From positions 930,001 to 994,000 of the forward strand of contig JAESUZ010001071.1 in assembly GCA_017311185.1 (NCBI GenBank): a stretch of 64,000 nucleotides of DNA, read 5' to 3'. The notes below the pieces were generated by a model. It made no database searches, was not told the origin of the DNA, and worked only from the letters and a program-made list of their open reading frames with translations. The stretch is from Proteles cristata cristata. Taxonomy: Eukaryota; Chordata; Mammalia; Carnivora; Hyaenidae. The position numbers and the translations under genes are program-made. Below, piece by piece: positions 1 through 61,075 of this stretch. How positions within the stretch are numbered: position 1 is the stretch's first letter; each line of letters opens with the position of its first letter.

Positions 1-429
1 AGAACATTCCACAGAAATAAAGGGAGAAGTAGAGAATTTCACACCCATAGTTGGAAATTTTGATAAACCTCCCTTGATAAATGATAGAAGCAGACAAAAA
101 TCATTACAGATAGAGAAGATTTCAATAAAGCTGTTAGCCAATTTAATTGCTTTTCTGAACAGTATACCCAATAACCATGGATATGCTTTCTTTTTAAATG
201 TATGTAAACCATTTAATAACATAAGTCATACACTGGCTTATAAAGCAAATATAACCAAATATCAAATACAACATAAATGGCCTCTGACTAACTAGAAATT
301 AAACTGAACTGATTTTTAAAAAAGGTAACCAGAAGACACCCAAGTGTGTTGTGAATTTAAGCAATCAATAAATATAAAAACCTAATAAAAAAATCAATAG
401 AACACTTGAAATGCCCTTTATAAAGAGCA
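1..429. other. AT-rich DNA, no gene recognised
   Basis: A-rich single-copy-looking sequence leading into an old L1 3' end. The 73-codon frame in it has no supporting splice, start or homology signal. It may be more eroded L1, because the sequence just downstream is L1. Confidence 0.4.
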
Positions 430-1055: not shown

Positions 1056-1388
1056 ATTTTTTTTTTTATTTCATAGTTTATTGTCAAGTTGGATTCCTTA
1101 TAACACCCAGTGCTCATCCCAACAAGTGCCCTCCTCCATGCCCATCACCCTCCTTCCCCTCTCCCTGACCCCCATCAGCCCTGAGTTTATTCTAAGCATT
1201 CAAGAGTCTCTCATGGTTTACCTCCCTCCCTTTACCCAAATATTTTCCCCCTTCTATTCCCCCATGGTCCTCCATTAAGTTTCCCCTAATCCTTCTATAC
1301 ATGAAAGCATATGGTATCTGTCTTTCTCTGCCTGATTTATTTCACTCACCATAACACCCTCAAGTTCTATCCATGTTGCTACAAATGG

Positions 1389-2860
1389 TCAGATTTCGTT
1401 CTTTCTCATTGCCATGTAGTATTCCATCATATAGATAAACCACATCTTCTTGATCCATTTGTCAGTTGAAGGACACTTAGGCTCTTTCCATGATTTGGCT
1501 ATTATTGAGAGTGCTGCTATGACCATTGGGGTACATGTGCCCCTAGGCATCAGCACTCCTGTATCCCTTGGGTAAATTCCTAGCAGTGCTATTTTTAGGT
1601 CATAGGGGAATTCTAGTGTTAATTTTTTGAGGAAGCTCCACACTGTTTTCCAGAGTGGCTATACCAGTTTACATTCCCACCAACAGTGTAGGAGGGTGCC
1701 CGTTTCTCACATCCTTGCCAGCATCTATAGTCTCTGGATTTGTTTATTTTAGCCATGCTGACTGGCATGAGGTGGTACCTCAGTGTGGTTTTGATCTGCA
1801 TTTCCCTGATGATGAGAGACGCTGAGCATCATTTCATGTGTCTGTTGGCCATCTGGATGTCCTCTTTGGAGAAGTGTCTGTTCATGTCTTCTGCCCATTT
1901 CTTCACTGGATTATTTGTTTTTTGGGTGTGGAGCTTGGTGAGTTCCTTATAGATTTTGGATACTAGCTCTTTATCTGATTTGCCATTTGCAACTATCTTT
2001 TCCCATTCCGTCAGTTGACTATTAGTTTTATTGATTGTTTCCTTTGCCATGCAGAAGCTTTTAATCTTGATGAGGTCCCAGTAGTTCATTTTTTGCTCTT
2101 GACTCCCTTGCCTTTGTGTCAAGTAAGAAATTGCTGTGGTTGAGGTCAAAGAGGTTTTTTTTTGCTTTCTCCTCTAGGGTTTTGATGGTTTCCTGTCTCA
2201 CATTCAGGTCCTTTATCCATTTTGAGTTTATTTTCGTGTATGGTGTGAGGCAGTCATCTAGTTTCATTCTTCTACATGTTGCTGTCCAGTTCTCCCAGCA
2301 CCATCTGTTAAAGAGGCTGTCTTTTATCCATTGGATACTCTTTCCTGCTTTGTCAAAGATTAGTTGGCCATACATTTGTGGGTCCAATTTTGTGCCAATA
2401 CCATACTGTCTTGAAGATTACAGCTTTGTAGTAGAGACTAAAGTCTGGGATGGTGATGCCTCTGGTTTTGGTTTTCTTCAGTATTTGGTTATTCAGGGTA
2501 TTTTGTCATTCCATACAAATTTTAGGATCATTTGTTCTAGTTTTGAGAAGAATGCTGGTGCAATTTTGATTGGGATTGCATTGAATGTGTAGATTGCTTT
2601 GGGTAGTAATAAACTTTTAACAATATTTATTCTTCTAATCCATAAGCATGGAATGTTTTTACATTTCTGTGTGTCTTCTTCATTTTCCTTCAGAAGTTTT
2701 CTATAGTTTTCATCATAGAGATCTCTTATATCTTTGGTTAGATTTATCCCTAGGTATTTTATGGTTGTTTTTTTTTTTTTTTTTTTTTTTTTTGTGCAAT
2801 TGTGAATGGGATCAATTTCTTGATTTCCCTTTCTGTTGCTTCATTATTGGTGTATAAAAA
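1389..2860 (-). pseudogene. L1 ORF2 C-terminal remnant
   Basis: Minus-strand frames carry the familiar C-terminal third of the L1 ORF2 protein. The frame at 2061-2387 has the [13 protein letters not shown] region, 1829-2149 has the [18 protein letters not shown] region, and 1389-1643 ends with MEYYMAMRKNEI. The pieces lie in different frames, so frameshifts break the reading frame. The endonuclease and reverse transcriptase domains are absent because of 5' truncation, so it cannot be autonomous. Confidence 0.8.
2768..2793. repeat. Poly(T) run, 26 bases, inside L1
   Basis: An uninterrupted T26 run lies inside the antisense L1 body, not at its tail. On the L1 sense strand it is an A26 run within ORF2, so it arose by homopolymer expansion after insertion. 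Confidence 0.9.
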
Positions 2861-2911
2861 TGCAACCCATTTCTGTACATTGATTTTGTACCCTGGATAT
2901 CTATAGGTCTT

Positions 2912-4983: not shown

Positions 4984-5609
4984 CAGGCATACCTTGTTTT
5001 ATCATGCTTTATTTTATTAAACCTCAGATACTGTGATTTTTACAGTGGAAGCTTTGTGGCATCCCTGCCCTGAGCAAGTCTATCAGTGCCTCTTTTTCCA
5101 ACAGCATTTGCTCATTTGGTACCTGTGTCTCATTTTAGCCTCCTGATATTTCAAACTTTTTCATTATATTTGTTATGGTGATCTTCAATCATGACTCACT
5201 GAAAACTCAGAAAATGGCTATTATTTTTTAGCAATAAAGTATTTTTTAATTTCAGGTGTGTATTTTTTTTTAGACTTGATACTATTGCACACTTAATAGA
5301 CTACAGTTTAGTGTAAACATAGCTTTTAAATGTCCTGGGAAGGCAGAATATTCATTTTTTTTTAATGTTTAGTTTGAGAGAACCCATACATGAGTGGGGG
5401 AGGGATAGAGAGAAGGGGAGAGAGAGAATTCTAAGCAGGATCCATGCTGTCAGTATAGAGTCTGATGCAGGGCTTAAACTCATGAACTGTGAGATCATGA
5501 CCTGAGCCAAAATCAAGAGTCAGGCACTTATCTGACTGGCTCACCTGGGCGCTCCCAAAATATTCATTTGAATTGCTTTACTGCAGTGGTCTGGAACCAG
5601 GTATGCCTG
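4984..5609. mobile_element. Tigger-like DNA transposon (MITE), TIRs intact, SINE nested
   Basis: The element opens with CAGGCATACC at 4984 and closes with the exact reverse complement GGTATGCCTG at 5600-5609. TA dinucleotides flank both ends (4982-4983 and 5610-5611), as expected for Tc1/mariner-pogo elements. Without the nested SINE at 5358-5558 it is about 0.41 kb and has no transposase frame, so it is a non-autonomous internal-deletion derivative. Internal blocks match the second copy at 61186-61618. I recall these ends as Tigger1/MER37-type; the name needs a library search. Confidence 0.85.
5358..5558 (-). mobile_element. CAN SINE, antisense, nested in Tigger-like element
   Basis: The minus-strand tRNA-like head lies at the right end (TGAGCCA/ACCTGGGCGC type), then the 'gagatcatgacctgagcc' block, a GA-rich body and a T-rich tail at 5358. 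The repeats AATATTCATTT at 5347-5357 and 5559-5569 are its TSD. It is older than the CpG-rich copies. Confidence 0.85.
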
Positions 5610-14599: not shown

Positions 14600-16890
14600 A
14601 ACTGATTATGAGCAAGGAGATTGAATCAATTAAAAAAAAAAACCTCCCAACAAACAGAAATCCAGGACCAGAAGTCTCCACAGCTGAATTCTACCAAACA
14701 TTTTAAGAAGAGTAATACCTATTCTTCTCAAACTATTCCAAAAAATAGAAGAAAATCTTACAATTTATTCTATGAGGTGAGAATATCACCCTACTACCAA
14801 AAACAAAGATACCACTAAAGAAGAGAACTAGAGAACAACACAGATGCAAAAATCCTCAGTGAAATATTACCAAACTGAATTCAATAATGCATTAAAACAA
14901 TCATTCATCATGATCAAGTGGGATTTATTCCAAGAAAGCAAGTGTGGTTCAAAATTCACAAAATTGATGGAATACATCAATAAGAGAAATAAAAATCAAA
15001 TCATTTCAATAGAAAAAATCATATCATTTCAATAGATGCAGAATAAGCATTTGGCAAAGTACAACATCCATTCATGATAAAAGCCCTCAACAAAGTTGGT
15101 TTAAGAAGAACATATTACAACCTAATAAAGGTCTTATAGGAGAAGCCCACAGCCAACATCATACTCAAAGGGGAAAACTGAGAACTTTCCCTCTAAAGTT
15201 AGGATGTCCACTCTCACCACTTTTATTAGACATAGTACTAGAAGTCCTAACCATGGCAATTAGACAACATAAAAAAATAAATAAAAGGCATCCAAATTGG
15301 TAAAGAAGAAGTACAACTATTTGCAAATGTCATGACGCTGCATATAAAAAAAAAAATCCTAAAAACTCCACCAGAAACTACTAGGGCTGATAAATGAATT
15401 CAGTAAAGTCACAGGATACAAAAGTCAATGTGCAGAAATGTGTCACATTTCCAGACACTAATAATGAAGCAACAAATGGAGAAATTAAGAAAATAATCCC
15501 ATTTGGAGTTGCAACAAAAATAAGATACCTAGGAATACACCTAACCACAGAGGTGAAAGACCTGTACTCTGAAAACAGACACTGATGAAAATTTGAAGAT
15601 GACACAAACAAATGGAAAGGCATTCCCTGAAGATGGATTGGAACAAATATTGTTAAAATACCTTTACTACCCAAAGCAATCTACACATTCACTGTAAGCC
15701 CTACCAAAATATCAAGAGCATTTTTCAAAGAGCTAGAACAAACAATTCTAAGATTTGTATGGAACCACAGAAGACTCCCAAAGAGCCAAAGCAGTTTTAA
15801 AAAAAGAAAAGCAACGCTGGAGGTATCACAACTCCAGACTTCCAGTTATATTACAAAGATGTAGTAATCAAAACAGTATGATACTGGCACATGAATGGAC
15901 ACATAGATCAATTGAACAGAATAGAAACACGAGAAATAAACTCACAATTACATGGTCAATTAATCTTTGACAAAGAATACAAGAATATCCAATGGAAAAA
16001 AGACAGTATCTTTAACAAATTGTGTTGAGAAAACTGGTCAGCTATGTGCAAAAGAAGGAAATGTAACCACTTTCTTATACCATACACAAAAATAAACTCA
16101 AAGGGATTAAAGGTCTAAGTGAAACCATAAATATCTTAGAAAAGACTGCAAGCAGTAATGTCTCTGACATCATCCACAGCAAAACATTTTTCTAGGTAGG
16201 TTTCCTGAGGCAAGGGAAATAAAAGCTAAAATAAATTATTGGTACTACAGCAAAACAAAAAGCTTTTGCACAAAGGAAACAGTCAACAAAACTAAAAGGC
16301 AACCTGAGTGGAAGATGATATTTGCAAATGATATATCTGATAAAGGGCTGATCTCCAAAATATATGAAGAATTGATACAATACCCAAGACCAAATAATCC
16401 ATTTAAAAAACTGGAAGACATGAACAGTTTTCCAAAAAAAGACATACAGATGACCAAAAGACACATGAAAAGATGCTCCATATCACTCATTAGAAAAATG
16501 CAAGTCAAAGCTACCGTGAGGTATCACCTCATATCCACCGGAATGGCTAAAATCAAAAACACAAGAAACAAGAGTTGGTGAGGATGTGGAGAAAAAGGAA
16601 GTCTTTTGCACTGTTGGTAGGAATGCAAACTGGTGCAGTCACTGGGGAAAAGATATGGAAATTCCTCAAAAAGCTGAAAGTAGAACTACCCTATGGTCTA
16701 GGAATCATACTACTGATTTGTCCAAAAAATACACAACACAAATGCAAAGGGATACATGTACCCCCTGTGTTTATTGCAGGATTATTTACAATAACCAAGC
16801 TATGGAAGCAGCCCAAATGTCCATCATTACATGAAAGGAAGTGGTCTGTTTTTTATGTATATATAAAGGAGTTAAATCTTGCCATTTGAA
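14600..16890 (+). pseudogene. L1 ORF2 reverse transcriptase and C terminus, broken
   Basis: Fragments of the reverse transcriptase region appear in shifting frames (14621-15674), followed by the C-terminal region with MNSFPKKDIQMTKRHMKR (16315-16581) and a late-ORF2 piece (16575-16889). The FADD active-site motif reads FANV at 15320-15331, losing both aspartates. Together with the frameshifts this rules out activity. Confidence 0.75.
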
Positions 16891-33091: not shown

Positions 33092-33309
33092 TTTTTAATT
33101 TATTTTTAATGTTTTATTTATTTTTAGGAGAGAGAGAGAGACAGCGTGAGCAGGGGAGGGTCAGGAGAGAGGGAGTCACAGACTGAAACAGCCTCCAGGC
33201 TCTGAGCTGGCAGTCAGCACAGAGCCCAATGCGGGGCTCGAACCCACGAACCGCGAGATCATGACCCAAGTGAAAGTCGGACGCTCAACCGACTAAGCCA
33301 CCCAGGCGC
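33092..33309 (-). mobile_element. Young CAN SINE, antisense, with TSD
   Basis: CCTCCTGTTTCTTTA flanks it at 33077-33091 and 33310-33324, perfect. CpG-rich head (gaaccgcgagatc, gtcggacgc, ccaggcgcc). It forms a head-to-head pair with the next SINE. Confidence 0.95.
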
Positions 33310-33340
33310 CCTCCTGTTTCTTTAAAATATCTCCTGCGGG

Positions 33341-33528
33341 GGCCTGGGTGGCTTAGTCGGTTAAGCGTCCGACTTTCGCTTCATGATCTCGCGGTTCGTG
33401 GGTTCGAGCCTCGCGTCGGGCTCTGTGCTGACTGCCAGCTCAGAGCCTGGAGCCTGTTTCAGCCTGTGACTCCCTCTCTCTCTCTCTCCTAGAAATAAAT
33501 AAGACATTTAAAAAAAAAATAAAAAAAT
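33341..33528 (+). mobile_element. Young CAN SINE with TSD
   Basis: AAAATATCTCCTGCGGG (33324-33340) and AAAATGTCTCCTGCGGG (33529-33545) flank it, with one mismatch in 17. It has a small internal deletion after 'ctttcgctt' (33374) and a shortened CT region. Its head faces the head of the preceding SINE across 31 bp. Confidence 0.93.
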
Positions 33529-33545
33529 AAAATGTCTCCTGCGGG

Positions 33546-33700
33546 ATCACCTGGGTGGTTCAGTTGGTTAAGAGTCCAACTTTTGATTTCAGCTCAGGTC
33601 ATGATCTCACAGTTGTAAGACTGAGCCCCATGTCAGGCTCTGTGATGAGTATGGAGCTGCTTGTGATTCCCTCTCTCAAAAAATAAACATTAAAAAAAAA
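33546..33700 (+). mobile_element. Older, shortened CAN SINE
   Basis: 'cacctgggtggttcagttgg' at 33548 is its head, followed by 'caggtcatgatctcacagtt' and a short tail at 33678-33700. It lacks the middle CT-rich part. The younger SINE inserted close to its 5' end. Confidence 0.85.
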
Positions 33701-44337: not shown

Positions 44338-45316
44338 TGAACTAAAAGGCAAGCTATGGAATGGGAGAAGATATCTGCAAATGACATATCAGATGAAGGG
44401 TTGGTATCCAAGTTCTATAAAGAACTTACCAAACATAACAGCCAAATAACAAATAATCCAGTGAACAAACAGGCAGAAGACATAAACAGACATTTTTCCA
44501 AAGCAAACATCCAGATGGCTAGCAGACACATGAAAATTTGCTCAACATCACTCATCATCAGGGAAATACAAATCAAAACCACAATGAGACACCACCTCAT
44601 ACCTGTCAGAATGGCTAAAATTAACAATTCAGGACACAACAGATGTTGGTGAGGATGTGGAGAAAGGGGAACCCTTTTGCATTGCTGGTGGGAATGCAAA
44701 CTGGTGCAGCCACTCTGGAGAATAGTATAGAGGTTCCTCAGAAAATTAAAAATAGAACTACCTTATGACCCCACAATTACACTACTAGGGATTTATCCAA
44801 AGGATACAAAAATGCTGATTTGAAGGGACACATGTAGCCCAGTATTTATAGAAGCACTATCAACAATAGCCAAGTTATGGAAAATTATATATATAATATT
44901 AAACACACACAGAAACACACACACACTGAAAACTGCCCAGCAATGAAAAAGAATGAAATCTTGCCATTTACAACAATGTAGATGGAACTGGAGTGTATTA
45001 TGCTAAGTGAAATAAGTCAGAGAAAGACAGATATAGTGTAGGATTTCACTCACACACAGAATTTGAAAAACACAACAGATGAACATGGAGAAGGGAAGGA
45101 AAAAAGATAAAAACAGAGAGGAAGGCAAACCATAAGATATTCTTAAATGCAGAGAACAGAAGGTTGCTGAAGGGGAGGGGGGGATGGGTTAAATGGGTAA
45201 TGGGTGTTATTAAGGAGGGCACTTTTTGGGAAGAACACTGGGTGTCCCATGTAAGAGATGAATCACAGGGCTCTACTCCTGAAGCCAAGACTATACTGTC
45301 TGTTAACCTGAATTTA
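44338..45316 (+). mobile_element. 5'-truncated carnivore L1, sense, with TSD
   Basis: AGTTAAAATACTGAAAC (44321-44337) and AGTTAAAAATACTGAAAC (45317-45334) flank it, differing by one inserted A. The body begins 'tgaactaaaaggcaagctat' and carries the ORF2 C terminus and the 3' UTR with 'aagaacactgggtgt' (45230). It inserted into the older L1. Confidence 0.88.
44356..44652 (+). pseudogene. L1 ORF2 C-terminal fragment
   Basis: A 98-codon frame contains [20 protein letters not shown] and [18 protein letters not shown], the standard C-terminal region of ORF2. It stops within the following segment. It is a fragment of a truncated element with no catalytic domain. Confidence 0.8.
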
Positions 45317-52829: not shown

Positions 52830-52843
52830 TGGGACACATTTTC

Positions 52844-52928
52844 TTTCTTTCTTTTCTTTTTTTTTTTTTTTACAAATAGTTTATTGTCAAGTTGGTTTCC
52901 ATGTAACACCCAGTGCTCATCCCCACAA
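52844..52928 (-). mobile_element. Very short 5'-truncated L1, antisense, with TSD
   Basis: Only about 65 bp of carnivore L1 3' end ('aatagtttattgtcaagttg' to 'cagtgctcatccccacaa') plus a T-rich tail. TGGGACACATTTTC flanks it at 52830-52843 and 52929-52942 (one base may belong to the L1). Confidence 0.9.
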
Positions 52929-56255: not shown

Positions 56256-56385
56256 TTTTTTTTTTTTTACCTTATCACTAGTTATATAGTATATACATGT
56301 ACTTAATGTTCAAGATACACTAAATAGCTTGAAATCATCCAAAGTTCCATATATTCTACCTCTAATAGAGTACCAGTTCCTCCTT

Positions 56386-56502
56386 GGGGAGCCTGGGTGA
56401 CTCAGTCGGTTAAGTGTCTGACTTCGCCTCAGGTCATGATCTCACGGTTCATGACCTGAGCTGAAGTGAGACACTTAACTGACTGAGCCACTCAGGCACC
56501 TC
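56386..56502. repeat. Palindrome of two SINE heads
   Basis: Arms 56386-56439 and 56449-56502 are reverse complements with about 8 mismatches in 54, separated by a 9-nt loop. It was created by the inverted insertion and could extrude as a cruciform. Confidence 0.92.
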
Positions 56503-56654
56503 AAAGTAGTAATTTTCAAAATGTTTTTACCATGGTCTTCAGTAAGAAATCCTTTATACATTACTTTCCAATACGTGACATAGTATGTGTGCCTGTGTAC
56601 ACAGACGCACACACACACACACACACTCCCTACTGAGAGGAGAATTTGTAGATT
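56451..56654 (-). repeat. Inverted templated insertion copied from 57294-57491
   Basis: Read on the minus strand this matches 57294-57491 at about 95% by hand alignment. It covers the (GT)n array, the 'ttacagaccatggt'-type single-copy stretch (actgaagaccatggtaaaaa on the source strand) and the first ~53 bases of the SINE at 57439. It therefore includes the boundary between single-copy DNA and that SINE. The left junction shares TC and the right junction shares TT with both parents, which is microhomology of about 2 bp. Confidence 0.93.
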
Positions 56655-57293
56655 CTCCCCGCATTGGGCTCTGTCCTGACAGCTCAGAGCCTGGAGTGTG
56701 CTTCAGATTCTGTGTCTCCCTCTCTCTATGACCCTCCTCTGCTTGCTCTCCTCTCTCTCTAAAAAATAAAAGTAAGTATTAAGAAAATGAAAAAAGAATA
56801 TAAATTTCTCTACCTGCTCCCAATTCTCATTTACCTTGCAAAGTCATTTCTCCCCCAACTGTGACAGATGATTTATTTTTCTGTAAAGCTCTCCTTACCA
56901 CCAGCACAAATCCAATCACTTCTAATGTAGATGTTTTTTATATTCCAAAATATAGATTTTGTAGATTTTGTAGATTTTTGTCTTCAGCACAAAAGGGAAA
57001 CTTACATTTCATAGGCCTCATTTTGATAGCAAAAAGACTGTGTATCAATAATAATAATAATAATACAATACTGAACAGGATTGCTCTGGGAGTAGGGGTT
57101 TCCTGATCCTGCCATGGCTTGGTGGTAAATCATAGATATTTGTATTGATACTCACATAGCTCATCTGCCAGACAGCATTTTTGTAAACTATAGTTGTACC
57201 CCCTTTAGTGAATCCTGAATTTGGTTAAAAATGTATAGGGTAAGGCAGGATAGGATGGAAAATACAGTTTATCATGTGTAGTAAGGACAGCAT

Positions 57294-57491
57294 AATTTAC
57301 AAATCCTCCTCTCAGTAGGAAGTGTGTGTGTGTGTATGTGTATACAGGCACACATACTATGTCACATATTGGAAAGTAATGTATAAAGGATTTCTTACTG
57401 AAGACCATGGTAAAAACATTTTGAAAATAACTATATTAAGGTCCCTGAGTGGCTCAATCAGTTAAGTGTCTGACTTCAGCTCAGGTCATGA
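57294..57491 (+). other. Source segment of the inverted copy
   Basis: Single-copy DNA with a (GT)n array (57322-57341) joined to the 5' part of the SINE at 57439. Its SINE boundary carries a normal TSD, so this is the original location and 56451-56654 is the copy. Confidence 0.88.
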
Positions 57492-57651
57492 TCTCACTGT
57501 TCTTGGGTTTAGTTTGAGCCCCATATCAGTCTCTGTGCTGACACCGCAGAGCCTGCAGCCCACTTCCAGTTCTATGTCACCCTCTTTCTGCCACTCTGTG
57601 TCTCATGTTCTGTCTCTGTCGTTCTCAAAAATAAACATTAAAAAAAATAAA
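57439..57651 (+). mobile_element. CAN SINE with TSD
   Basis: GAAAATAACTATATTA (57423-57438) and GAAAATAACTATACTA (57652-57667) flank it, one mismatch in 16. The head is aggtccctgagtggctcaatcag. It was already present when the inverted copy at 56451-56654 was made. Confidence 0.93.
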
Positions 57652-57667
57652 GAAAATAACTATACTA

Positions 57668-60809: not shown

Positions 60810-61075
60810 TTAGGAGGATTAGGAGGAACTTAACAGAGGACCAAGGGGGAGAAGAAGGGCAGAAATGGTGGGGGGAAAGGGAGAGAGGCAAACCATGAGA
60901 GACTCTTGAATGCTGACAAAAACTGAGGACTGATGGATGTGGGGGGGAGGAGGGATGGGCATGGAGGAGGACACTTGTGGGGATGAGCACTGGGTGTTAT
61001 GTGGAAACTAATTTGACAATAAACTATTTGTAAAAAAAAACAAAAAAAAACAAAAAAAAAAAACAAAAAAAACCC
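60810..61075 (+). mobile_element. Short 5'-truncated carnivore L1 with 16-bp perfect TSD
   Basis: CACAATCCTAGATTAG occurs at 60794-60809 and 61076-61091. The body is the L1 3' UTR ('gaggcaaaccatgagagact' at 60886, 'gatgagcactgggtgttatg' at 60982), ending in a long A-rich tail with regular C interruptions (61032-61073). A perfect TSD suggests a relatively recent insertion. Confidence 0.95.

What the first reader, a model, noticed from the sequence alone, without database searches (positions are those of the whole stretch)
56386..57667. Inverted templated insertion: a SINE split by a reverse copy of a neighbour spanning another SINE's boundary
The SINE at 56386-56770 is interrupted after 'ctcacggttc' (56450) and resumes at 56655. 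The 204 bp between are the reverse complement of 57294-57491, about 0.8 kb away, at roughly 95% by hand alignment. The copied piece runs from single-copy DNA (with a GT array) across the 5' boundary into the first ~53 bp of another SINE. That SINE has a clean TSD at its own site, so the direction of copying is clear. Retrotransposition cannot carry flanking single-copy DNA upstream of a SINE in inverted orientation. A fork-stalling template switch or microhomology-mediated event, guided by two inverted-relative SINE heads, fits. About 10 bp of the host SINE were lost, and both junctions show about 2 bp of shared sequence.
Basis: partly seen in the sequence, partly recalled or inferred. Interest (0 to 1): 0.85.

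Follow-up and report, generated by a model that had tools for sequence, protein, structure and literature searches.

The report
Inverted local copy splits a SINE
An old copying error pasted a flipped 200-base copy of a neighbouring stretch into the middle of a cat-type repeat element; it is a clear fossil of a well-known kind of mutation, with one odd detail: the split repeat lacks its usual flanking duplication.

Summary
56449-56654 is the reverse complement of 57294-57491: 185 of 198 aligned bases agree (93.4%), with 13 substitutions and an 8-base GT-array length difference. The copy runs from non-SINE DNA across a SINE's 5' boundary and ends 53-54 bp inside that SINE. The donor SINE has a 15/16 target-site duplication (TSD), so the direction of copying is sound. 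The divergence (K2P 0.069) makes an assembly artefact or a recent event unlikely.

The best reading is a two-switch template-switch (MMBIR-like) insertion. This is a documented mutation class, so the case is a new member of a known kind.

(1) Both SINEs lie in the same orientation, so no inverted SINE pair guided the event.
(2) The left junction overlap is 2 to 6 bp (at most the palindrome TCATGA), depending on the unknown pre-event base; the right is about 2.
(3) Host loss is 1 to about 11 bp, for the same reason.
(4) The split host SINE has no detectable TSD, while 13 of 13 other SINEs tested do. Its halves may therefore belong to two SINEs.

No orthologue could be examined. The genome search did not complete.

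The parts
56386..56454 (+). 5' part of the host SINE (CAN/SINEC-like, tRNA-derived head); the last bases, 56449-56454 (TCATGA), can be credited to host or donor
   Evidence: alignment to 13 other SINEs of the window; overlap with the donor alignment
56449..56654 (-). templated insertion: reverse-complement copy of 57294-57491
   Evidence: 185/198 aligned bases identical, one 8-base array difference
56449..56502 (-). SINE-head part of the insertion (donor SINE positions 1 to about 54, truncated at its 3' side)
   Evidence: row copy_head_rc; 94.3% to the donor SINE over 53 bases
56655..56800 (+). 3' part of the host SINE with its A-rich tail
   Evidence: alignment; end of tail read by eye
57294..57491 (+). 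donor (template) segment: non-SINE DNA with a GT array, TSD, first 53-54 bp of the donor SINE
57423..57438 (+). 5' target-site duplication of the donor SINE
   Evidence: 15/16 to 57652-57667; none of 200 null draws reaches its score
57438..57651 (+). donor SINE, complete
   Evidence: start at 57438 or 57439 not resolved
57652..57667 (+). 3' target-site duplication of the donor SINE
56384..56504 (.). near-palindrome made by the event: host SINE head against inverted copied SINE head, arms 56 bp, 9-nt centre
   Evidence: I2, 86% complementary; single-strand DNA fold -47.7 kcal/mol, z -12.2

Best explanation
An old germline mutation by two template switches. A nascent strand extending through the host SINE (+ sense) stopped near 56450-56454 and re-annealed, through 2 to 6 matching bases (at most the palindrome TCATGA), to the other (+) template strand at 57486-57491, about 0.83 kb ahead in the pre-event sequence. 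It copied about 198 bases backwards to 57294, out of the donor SINE head and across its target site into non-SINE DNA, and then returned to SINE sequence at about a 2-base TT match. The result is one inverted dispersed copy with a small loss and a new SINE-head hairpin. Shown: copy, orientation, extent, direction of copying. Inferred: template switching (MMBIR/fork) rather than capture at a break, the microhomology used, and that the return was to the same SINE. I see no function; it is a mutational scar.
For: Contiguous inverted copy spanning a SINE boundary. Donor SINE complete with 15/16 TSD. The copied head is the donor's: 94.3% to the donor SINE over 53 bases, against 85.2% to the host head over 54 and 88.9% to SINE 29353 over 54. 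No poly-A in the insert, and host bases lost rather than duplicated, read by eye, so not L1-mediated. The geometry is the '1-4-3-2' order, one of the two majority patterns reported for germline template switches in great apes (PMC7954356, passages and section 8 part 1), and the described MMBIR signature: an insertion near and inverted to its template with junction microhomology (PMC8421209, passages and section 10 part 1). If the pre-event host already read TCATGA, a floating overlap of 6 bp has P about 0.0013 (analytic, equal base frequencies).
Against: Microhomology is not proven. By eye, 11 of 13 relatives have G where the host now has A at the left junction, and only one (s5538m) reads TCATGA there; with G in the host the unmutated overlap is only TC (P 0.16), as at the right junction (TT, P 0.16). 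At 198-204 bp the insert exceeds the longest copied tract in the great-ape gold-standard set (max 128, median 12), and the distance exceeds the 100 bp range of MMBSearch. The host SINE lacks a TSD, which simple insertion into one ordinary SINE does not explain.
Confidence: 0.7

Rival explanations
1. SINE-SINE chimera: the two host halves come from two different SINEs. The inverted templated patch sits at the junction of a deletion that removed the end of the first, the DNA between, and the head of the second (a SINE recombination/template-switch deletion with a templated insertion). This shares the copying step with the best explanation and changes what was lost, so its confidence overlaps with that one.
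For: 13 of 13 other SINEs tested have a TSD (12 at P 0.02 or less, one at 0.05; 60 null draws each), while the host's best candidate is 8/10 with P 0.65; a second ungapped scan (P 0.785) and a gapped one (P 0.60) also find none. Age does not excuse it: host non-CpG divergence from the window consensus is 6.1% (8/131), the third lowest of the 14 elements. Loss of matching TSDs is the usual mark of recombinant SINEs (recalled from the Alu literature; the paper I tried to read for it was not held).
Against: The halves resume in register within about 11 bp, which two unrelated cuts would rarely give unless homology guided the return. Both halves show similar divergence (7 of 63 and 8 of 84) and both are nearest to the same window SINE, 29353, though by narrow margins (57/64 against 56/64 for the next; 75/83 against 73/81). 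Some SINE insertions lack a TSD (recalled).
Confidence: 0.4
2. Break repair by patch capture: a double-strand break in the host SINE was filled by a roughly 200-nt DNA fragment of the neighbouring region (for example a displaced flap) or by a reverse-transcribed RNA, ligated in inverted orientation by end joining (class 2 templated insertion).
For: Small loss at the site and junction overlaps that may be only 2 bp fit end joining. Experimental templated insertions at breaks in human cells, after enrichment for insertions by gel, had a median of 191 bp, and class 2 insertions have neither TSD nor poly-A (PMC5110952, parts 1-2 of 4). Templated and inverted insertions at yeast breaks are documented (PMC11724301, passages and start of abstract).
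Against: The human patches mapped to distant loci rather than nearby ones, and the yeast local inverted ones are mostly about 5-34 bp; a source 0.64-0.83 kb away is more simply explained by switching within a fork or repair bubble.
Confidence: 0.25
3. Assembly or library artefact (foldback chimera).
For: Inverted local duplications are a common artefact form (general knowledge).
Against: The copies differ at 13 of 198 sites and in GT-array length; an artefact would be identical. Where the SINE consensus allows polarising, changes fall on both copies: donor 57443 and 57457, copy 56468.
Confidence: 0.02
4. Ordinary retrotransposition or nested SINE insertion.
For: SINEs are dense here (19 hits).
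Against: The insert holds non-SINE DNA upstream of a SINE head, its SINE part is truncated at the 3' side, and it shows no poly-A and no TSD (by eye).
Confidence: 0.02

Closest known systems
MMBIR-linked templated insertions (MMB-TI), PMC8421209
   Same: inverted insertion close to its complementary template, junction overlaps, germline occurrence (103 and 99 filtered calls of 25 bp or more in two people, 10 and 11 of them 'classical')
Short-range template switches (four-point model), PMC7954356
   Same: order 1-4-3-2, a single inverted repeat made, small host loss
   Different: tract about 198 bp against a median of 12 and a maximum of 128 in their gold-standard set
Class 2 templated sequence insertions, PMC5110952
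   Same: size near their experimental median (191 bp), microdeletion, no TSD, no poly-A
   Different: source adjacent rather than distant; an RNA intermediate was not tested for here
Alu recombination-mediated deletions (recalled; no paper on them read beyond passing mentions in PMC3024322)
   Same: a SINE whose two ends lack matching TSDs
   Different: here the SINE is interrupted by an inverted patch, and no second parent SINE is seen

Membership tests
MMBIR-type templated insertion | insert is a copy of a still-present nearby template | tested here: met
   93.4% over 198 aligned bases; template site intact with the SINE's TSD
MMBIR-type templated insertion | inverted orientation to the template | tested here: met
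MMBIR-type templated insertion | microhomology at junctions | tested here: inconclusive
   left 2 to 6 bp depending on the unknown pre-event host; right 2 bp; 2 bp is expected by chance at 0.16
MMBIR-type templated insertion | arises during replication or break-induced replication | not testable with these tools
   sequence alone cannot show it
Four-point template switch (PMC7954356) | three ordered fragments L-1, 2-3 (reverse complement), 4-R explain the locus | tested here: met
   points near 56454, 57491, 57294, 56655; the ancestral host sequence was inferred from SINE relatives, not seen; their pair-HMM was not run
L1-mediated retrotransposition (class 1 TSI, SINE) | TSD and poly-A at the insert | tested here: not met
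   no A-tail at either insert end; host bases lost rather than duplicated (by eye)
SINE recombination-mediated deletion (chimeric SINE) | flanks of the element lack matching TSDs | tested here: met
   P 0.65 for the host against 13 of 13 other tested SINEs with a TSD
SINE recombination-mediated deletion (chimeric SINE) | orthologue has two SINEs with DNA between them | not testable with these tools
   no feliform genome at hand; the genome search not answered
Feliform CanSINE subfamily II (PMC4084570) | lacks the subfamily I 'TCCTGAT' motif near position 36 | tested here: met
   host and donor lack it, while 5538m and 33550 carry a 7-nt insertion there (motif)
Feliform CanSINE subfamily II (PMC4084570) | 'GGCTCGG' motif near position 118 and B-box variant | not tested
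   not scored

The most novel reading that the evidence does not exclude
One replication accident did two things at once: it deleted DNA between two direct SINEs and filled the junction with an inverted copy of a third SINE's boundary, primed by the palindrome TCATGA, which the donor-type position of this SINE carries in 13 of 13 aligned copies of the window (by eye). If general, this SINE family would carry a built-in inter-strand template-switch primer, and TSD-less, hairpin-bearing split SINEs would recur across feliform genomes.
Probability: 0.08. Interest if true: 0.5.

Novelty: new member of a known kind. Interest (0 to 1): 0.25.

Why it matters
It is a readable fossil of an inverted local copying event at a length (about 200 bp) and distance (0.6-0.8 kb) beyond the limits of the two short-range surveys I read, so such events may be under-counted. 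The SINE TSD lets the direction of copying be read without an outgroup. A possible role of a palindrome inside an abundant SINE as a switch primer is testable genome-wide. As a single case it changes no one's view of mechanism.

Tried and rejected
Clustered mutations from error-prone synthesis: 5 of 13 mismatches lie in 57429-57443 and a 62-bp identical run precedes them, but random placement gives these at P 0.06 (5 in 15 bp), 0.12 (4 in 10 bp) and 0.09 (the run), so I do not claim it, nor later gene conversion.

Foldback copy of the host's own SINE head: rejected, since the copied head is 94.3% to the donor SINE but 85.2% to the host head, and it is continuous with donor flank.

Other events of this kind in the window: of the 7 rows, 52839/60975 looks like two independent L1 3' ends (label recalled), one is the copied head matching SINE 54920, and four are diverged matches (70-76%) that look like older repeats by eye. 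Pairs lying mostly in SINE intervals that I listed by hand were dropped before that count.

Chimera test by subfamily: host halves do not differ clearly in divergence or nearest relative; not decisive.

Large ORFs: 2 of at least 150 aa under table 11, neither followed.

Structural-variant terms dDUP/INS-iDEL: the 8 rows listed of 40 papers were not relevant. PMC3024322 was looked at in passages and gave no statement on TSD loss in recombinant SINEs. Apart from the papers cited here as read in passages or sections, papers in the listings were not opened.

Weakness of the TSD count: of the 19 SINE hits, three partial ones (30040, 34387, 37947) were not tested for TSD, one is the copied head, two are the host halves and 13 are the tested elements. 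Element boundaries were set by hand and the null used 60 draws per element.

The relatives show that 2 bp is as possible. I lowered the best explanation from 0.75 to 0.70 and the novel case from 0.12 to 0.08, and raised patch capture from 0.20 to 0.25.

Full report
What is there. The window holds many copies of a tRNA-derived SINE (19 hits with the donor SINE as query). I recognise it from memory as the carnivore CAN/SINEC type with feliform features. One copy at 57438-57651 (+) is complete and flanked by a 15/16 target-site duplication. Another at 56386 (+) is interrupted after its first 65-69 bases and resumes at 56655. The stretch between is the reverse complement of 57294-57491: one alignment block, 185 matches, 13 mismatches, one 8-base gap inside the GT array. 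The copied piece starts in DNA whose only other matches in the window at E 0.001 cover its GT array, crosses the donor SINE's 5' boundary, and stops 53-54 bases into it. Against 311 other 400-bp segments the non-SINE part scores 232 versus a best of 42, so chance is excluded.

Direction and reality. The donor SINE sits in its own TSD and continues to its tail, while the insert's SINE part stops inside the body and breaks another SINE; the neighbour is the source. The copies differ by K2P 0.069 (13/198; uncorrected 95% CI 3.5-11.0%), so this is not an assembly foldback. Halved, it is about 3.3% per copy. With recalled mammalian neutral rates near 1-2 x 10^-9 per site per year this is very roughly 15-35 million years, and the confidence interval widens it further. 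It is probably, not surely, older than the felid radiation (about 10 million years in the abstract of PMC4084570). I therefore predict it in all living cats; this was not tested. The host SINE is 6.1% from the window consensus at non-CpG sites (8/131), more than 3.3%, which fits an insertion before the event.

Junctions. At the left, 56449-56454 reads TCATGA. The donor has TCATGA at 57486-57491 and so explains all six bases. The host's relatives read TTC or TTT followed by G in most copies: 11 of 13 have G where the host now has A, one (s5538m) has A, and the donor has T (by eye). If the host also had G, the overlap that needs no later mutation is TC (2 bp, P 0.16); if it already had A, the overlap is TCATGA (6 bp, P 0.0013). 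TCATGA is its own reverse complement, so a 3' end carrying it can anneal to either strand. This would give an inter-strand switch a primer without any inverted repeat. At the right the shared run is TT, perhaps TTC, which chance would often give. Host loss is 1 to about 11 bases, depending on how the junction bases are credited.

The unexpected detail. I tested 13 other SINEs of the window for TSDs by one procedure. All 13 had one (12 at P 0.02 or less, s9017m at 0.05), whereas the split host SINE's best candidate is 8 of 10 at P 0.65. Another ungapped scan and a gapped one agree. Three partial SINE hits were not tested. The host is among the less diverged elements, so decay is a poor excuse. 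Either it inserted without a TSD, or its halves belong to two SINEs whose joining ends were lost in the same event, or a flank was altered by something else. In-register resumption, similar divergence of the halves (7/63 and 8/84) and the same nearest relative by narrow margins argue for one element; the missing TSD argues for two. I cannot decide without an orthologue.

Consequence. The event made a near-palindrome, 56384-56439 against 56449-56504 (86% complementary), folding as single-stranded DNA at -47.7 kcal/mol (z -12.2, 0 of 200 shuffles). I have no evidence of function.

Compared with the literature. Inverted local templated insertions are a described germline and somatic class. PMC8421209 (passages and section 10 part 1 read) describes the MMBIR signature as an insertion near and inverted to its template with junction microhomology, and reports 103 and 99 filtered germline calls of 25 bp or more in two people. 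PMC7954356 (passages and section 8 part 1 read) reports 4017 significant events across great apes, the majority patterns, and gives copied tracts a median of 12 and a maximum of 128 in the gold-standard set. The present case has that order but is longer and its template farther away. PMC5110952 (parts 1-2 of 4 read) describes class 2 templated insertions at breaks, with a median of 191 bp in cell lines after gel enrichment, from distant loci. So the kind is known; this is one more member, on the large side for the short-range class, with a TSD anomaly worth an orthologue check.

Verdict. Observation confirmed; mechanism most likely a two-switch template-switch insertion (0.70, with simple split and chimera both open); interest low to moderate.

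Noticed in passing
window 33105-33700: Three SINEs within 600 bp: 33306 (-) and 33343 (+) stand head to head as a near-palindrome (33165-33480), and 33550 (+) follows directly, its TSD overlapping that of 33343. It looks like serial insertion into one target.
   Followed up: partly
window 5340-5556 and 33543-33700: Two SINEs carry a 7-nt insertion (TCTTGAT and TTTTGAT) near position 38, resembling the subfamily I 'TCCTGAT' motif of PMC4084570: apparently older, feliform-wide elements beside younger ones.
   Followed up: partly
window 56386-56800: The split SINE lacks a TSD while 13 of 13 other SINEs tested in the window have one.
   Followed up: yes
window 56953-56978: Perfect short tandem repeat, 9-bp unit TAGATTTTG, 2.9 copies, between host and donor.
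   Followed up: no
window 1103-2895, 15412-16826, 44340-45245: Long diverged inverted matches (68-73%, 0.9-1.5 kb), probably old L1 copies (label by guess).
   Followed up: no
window 52839-52928 and 60975-61063: 90% inverted match with A/T-rich ends, looks like the 3' ends of two L1 insertions (label recalled).
   Followed up: partly
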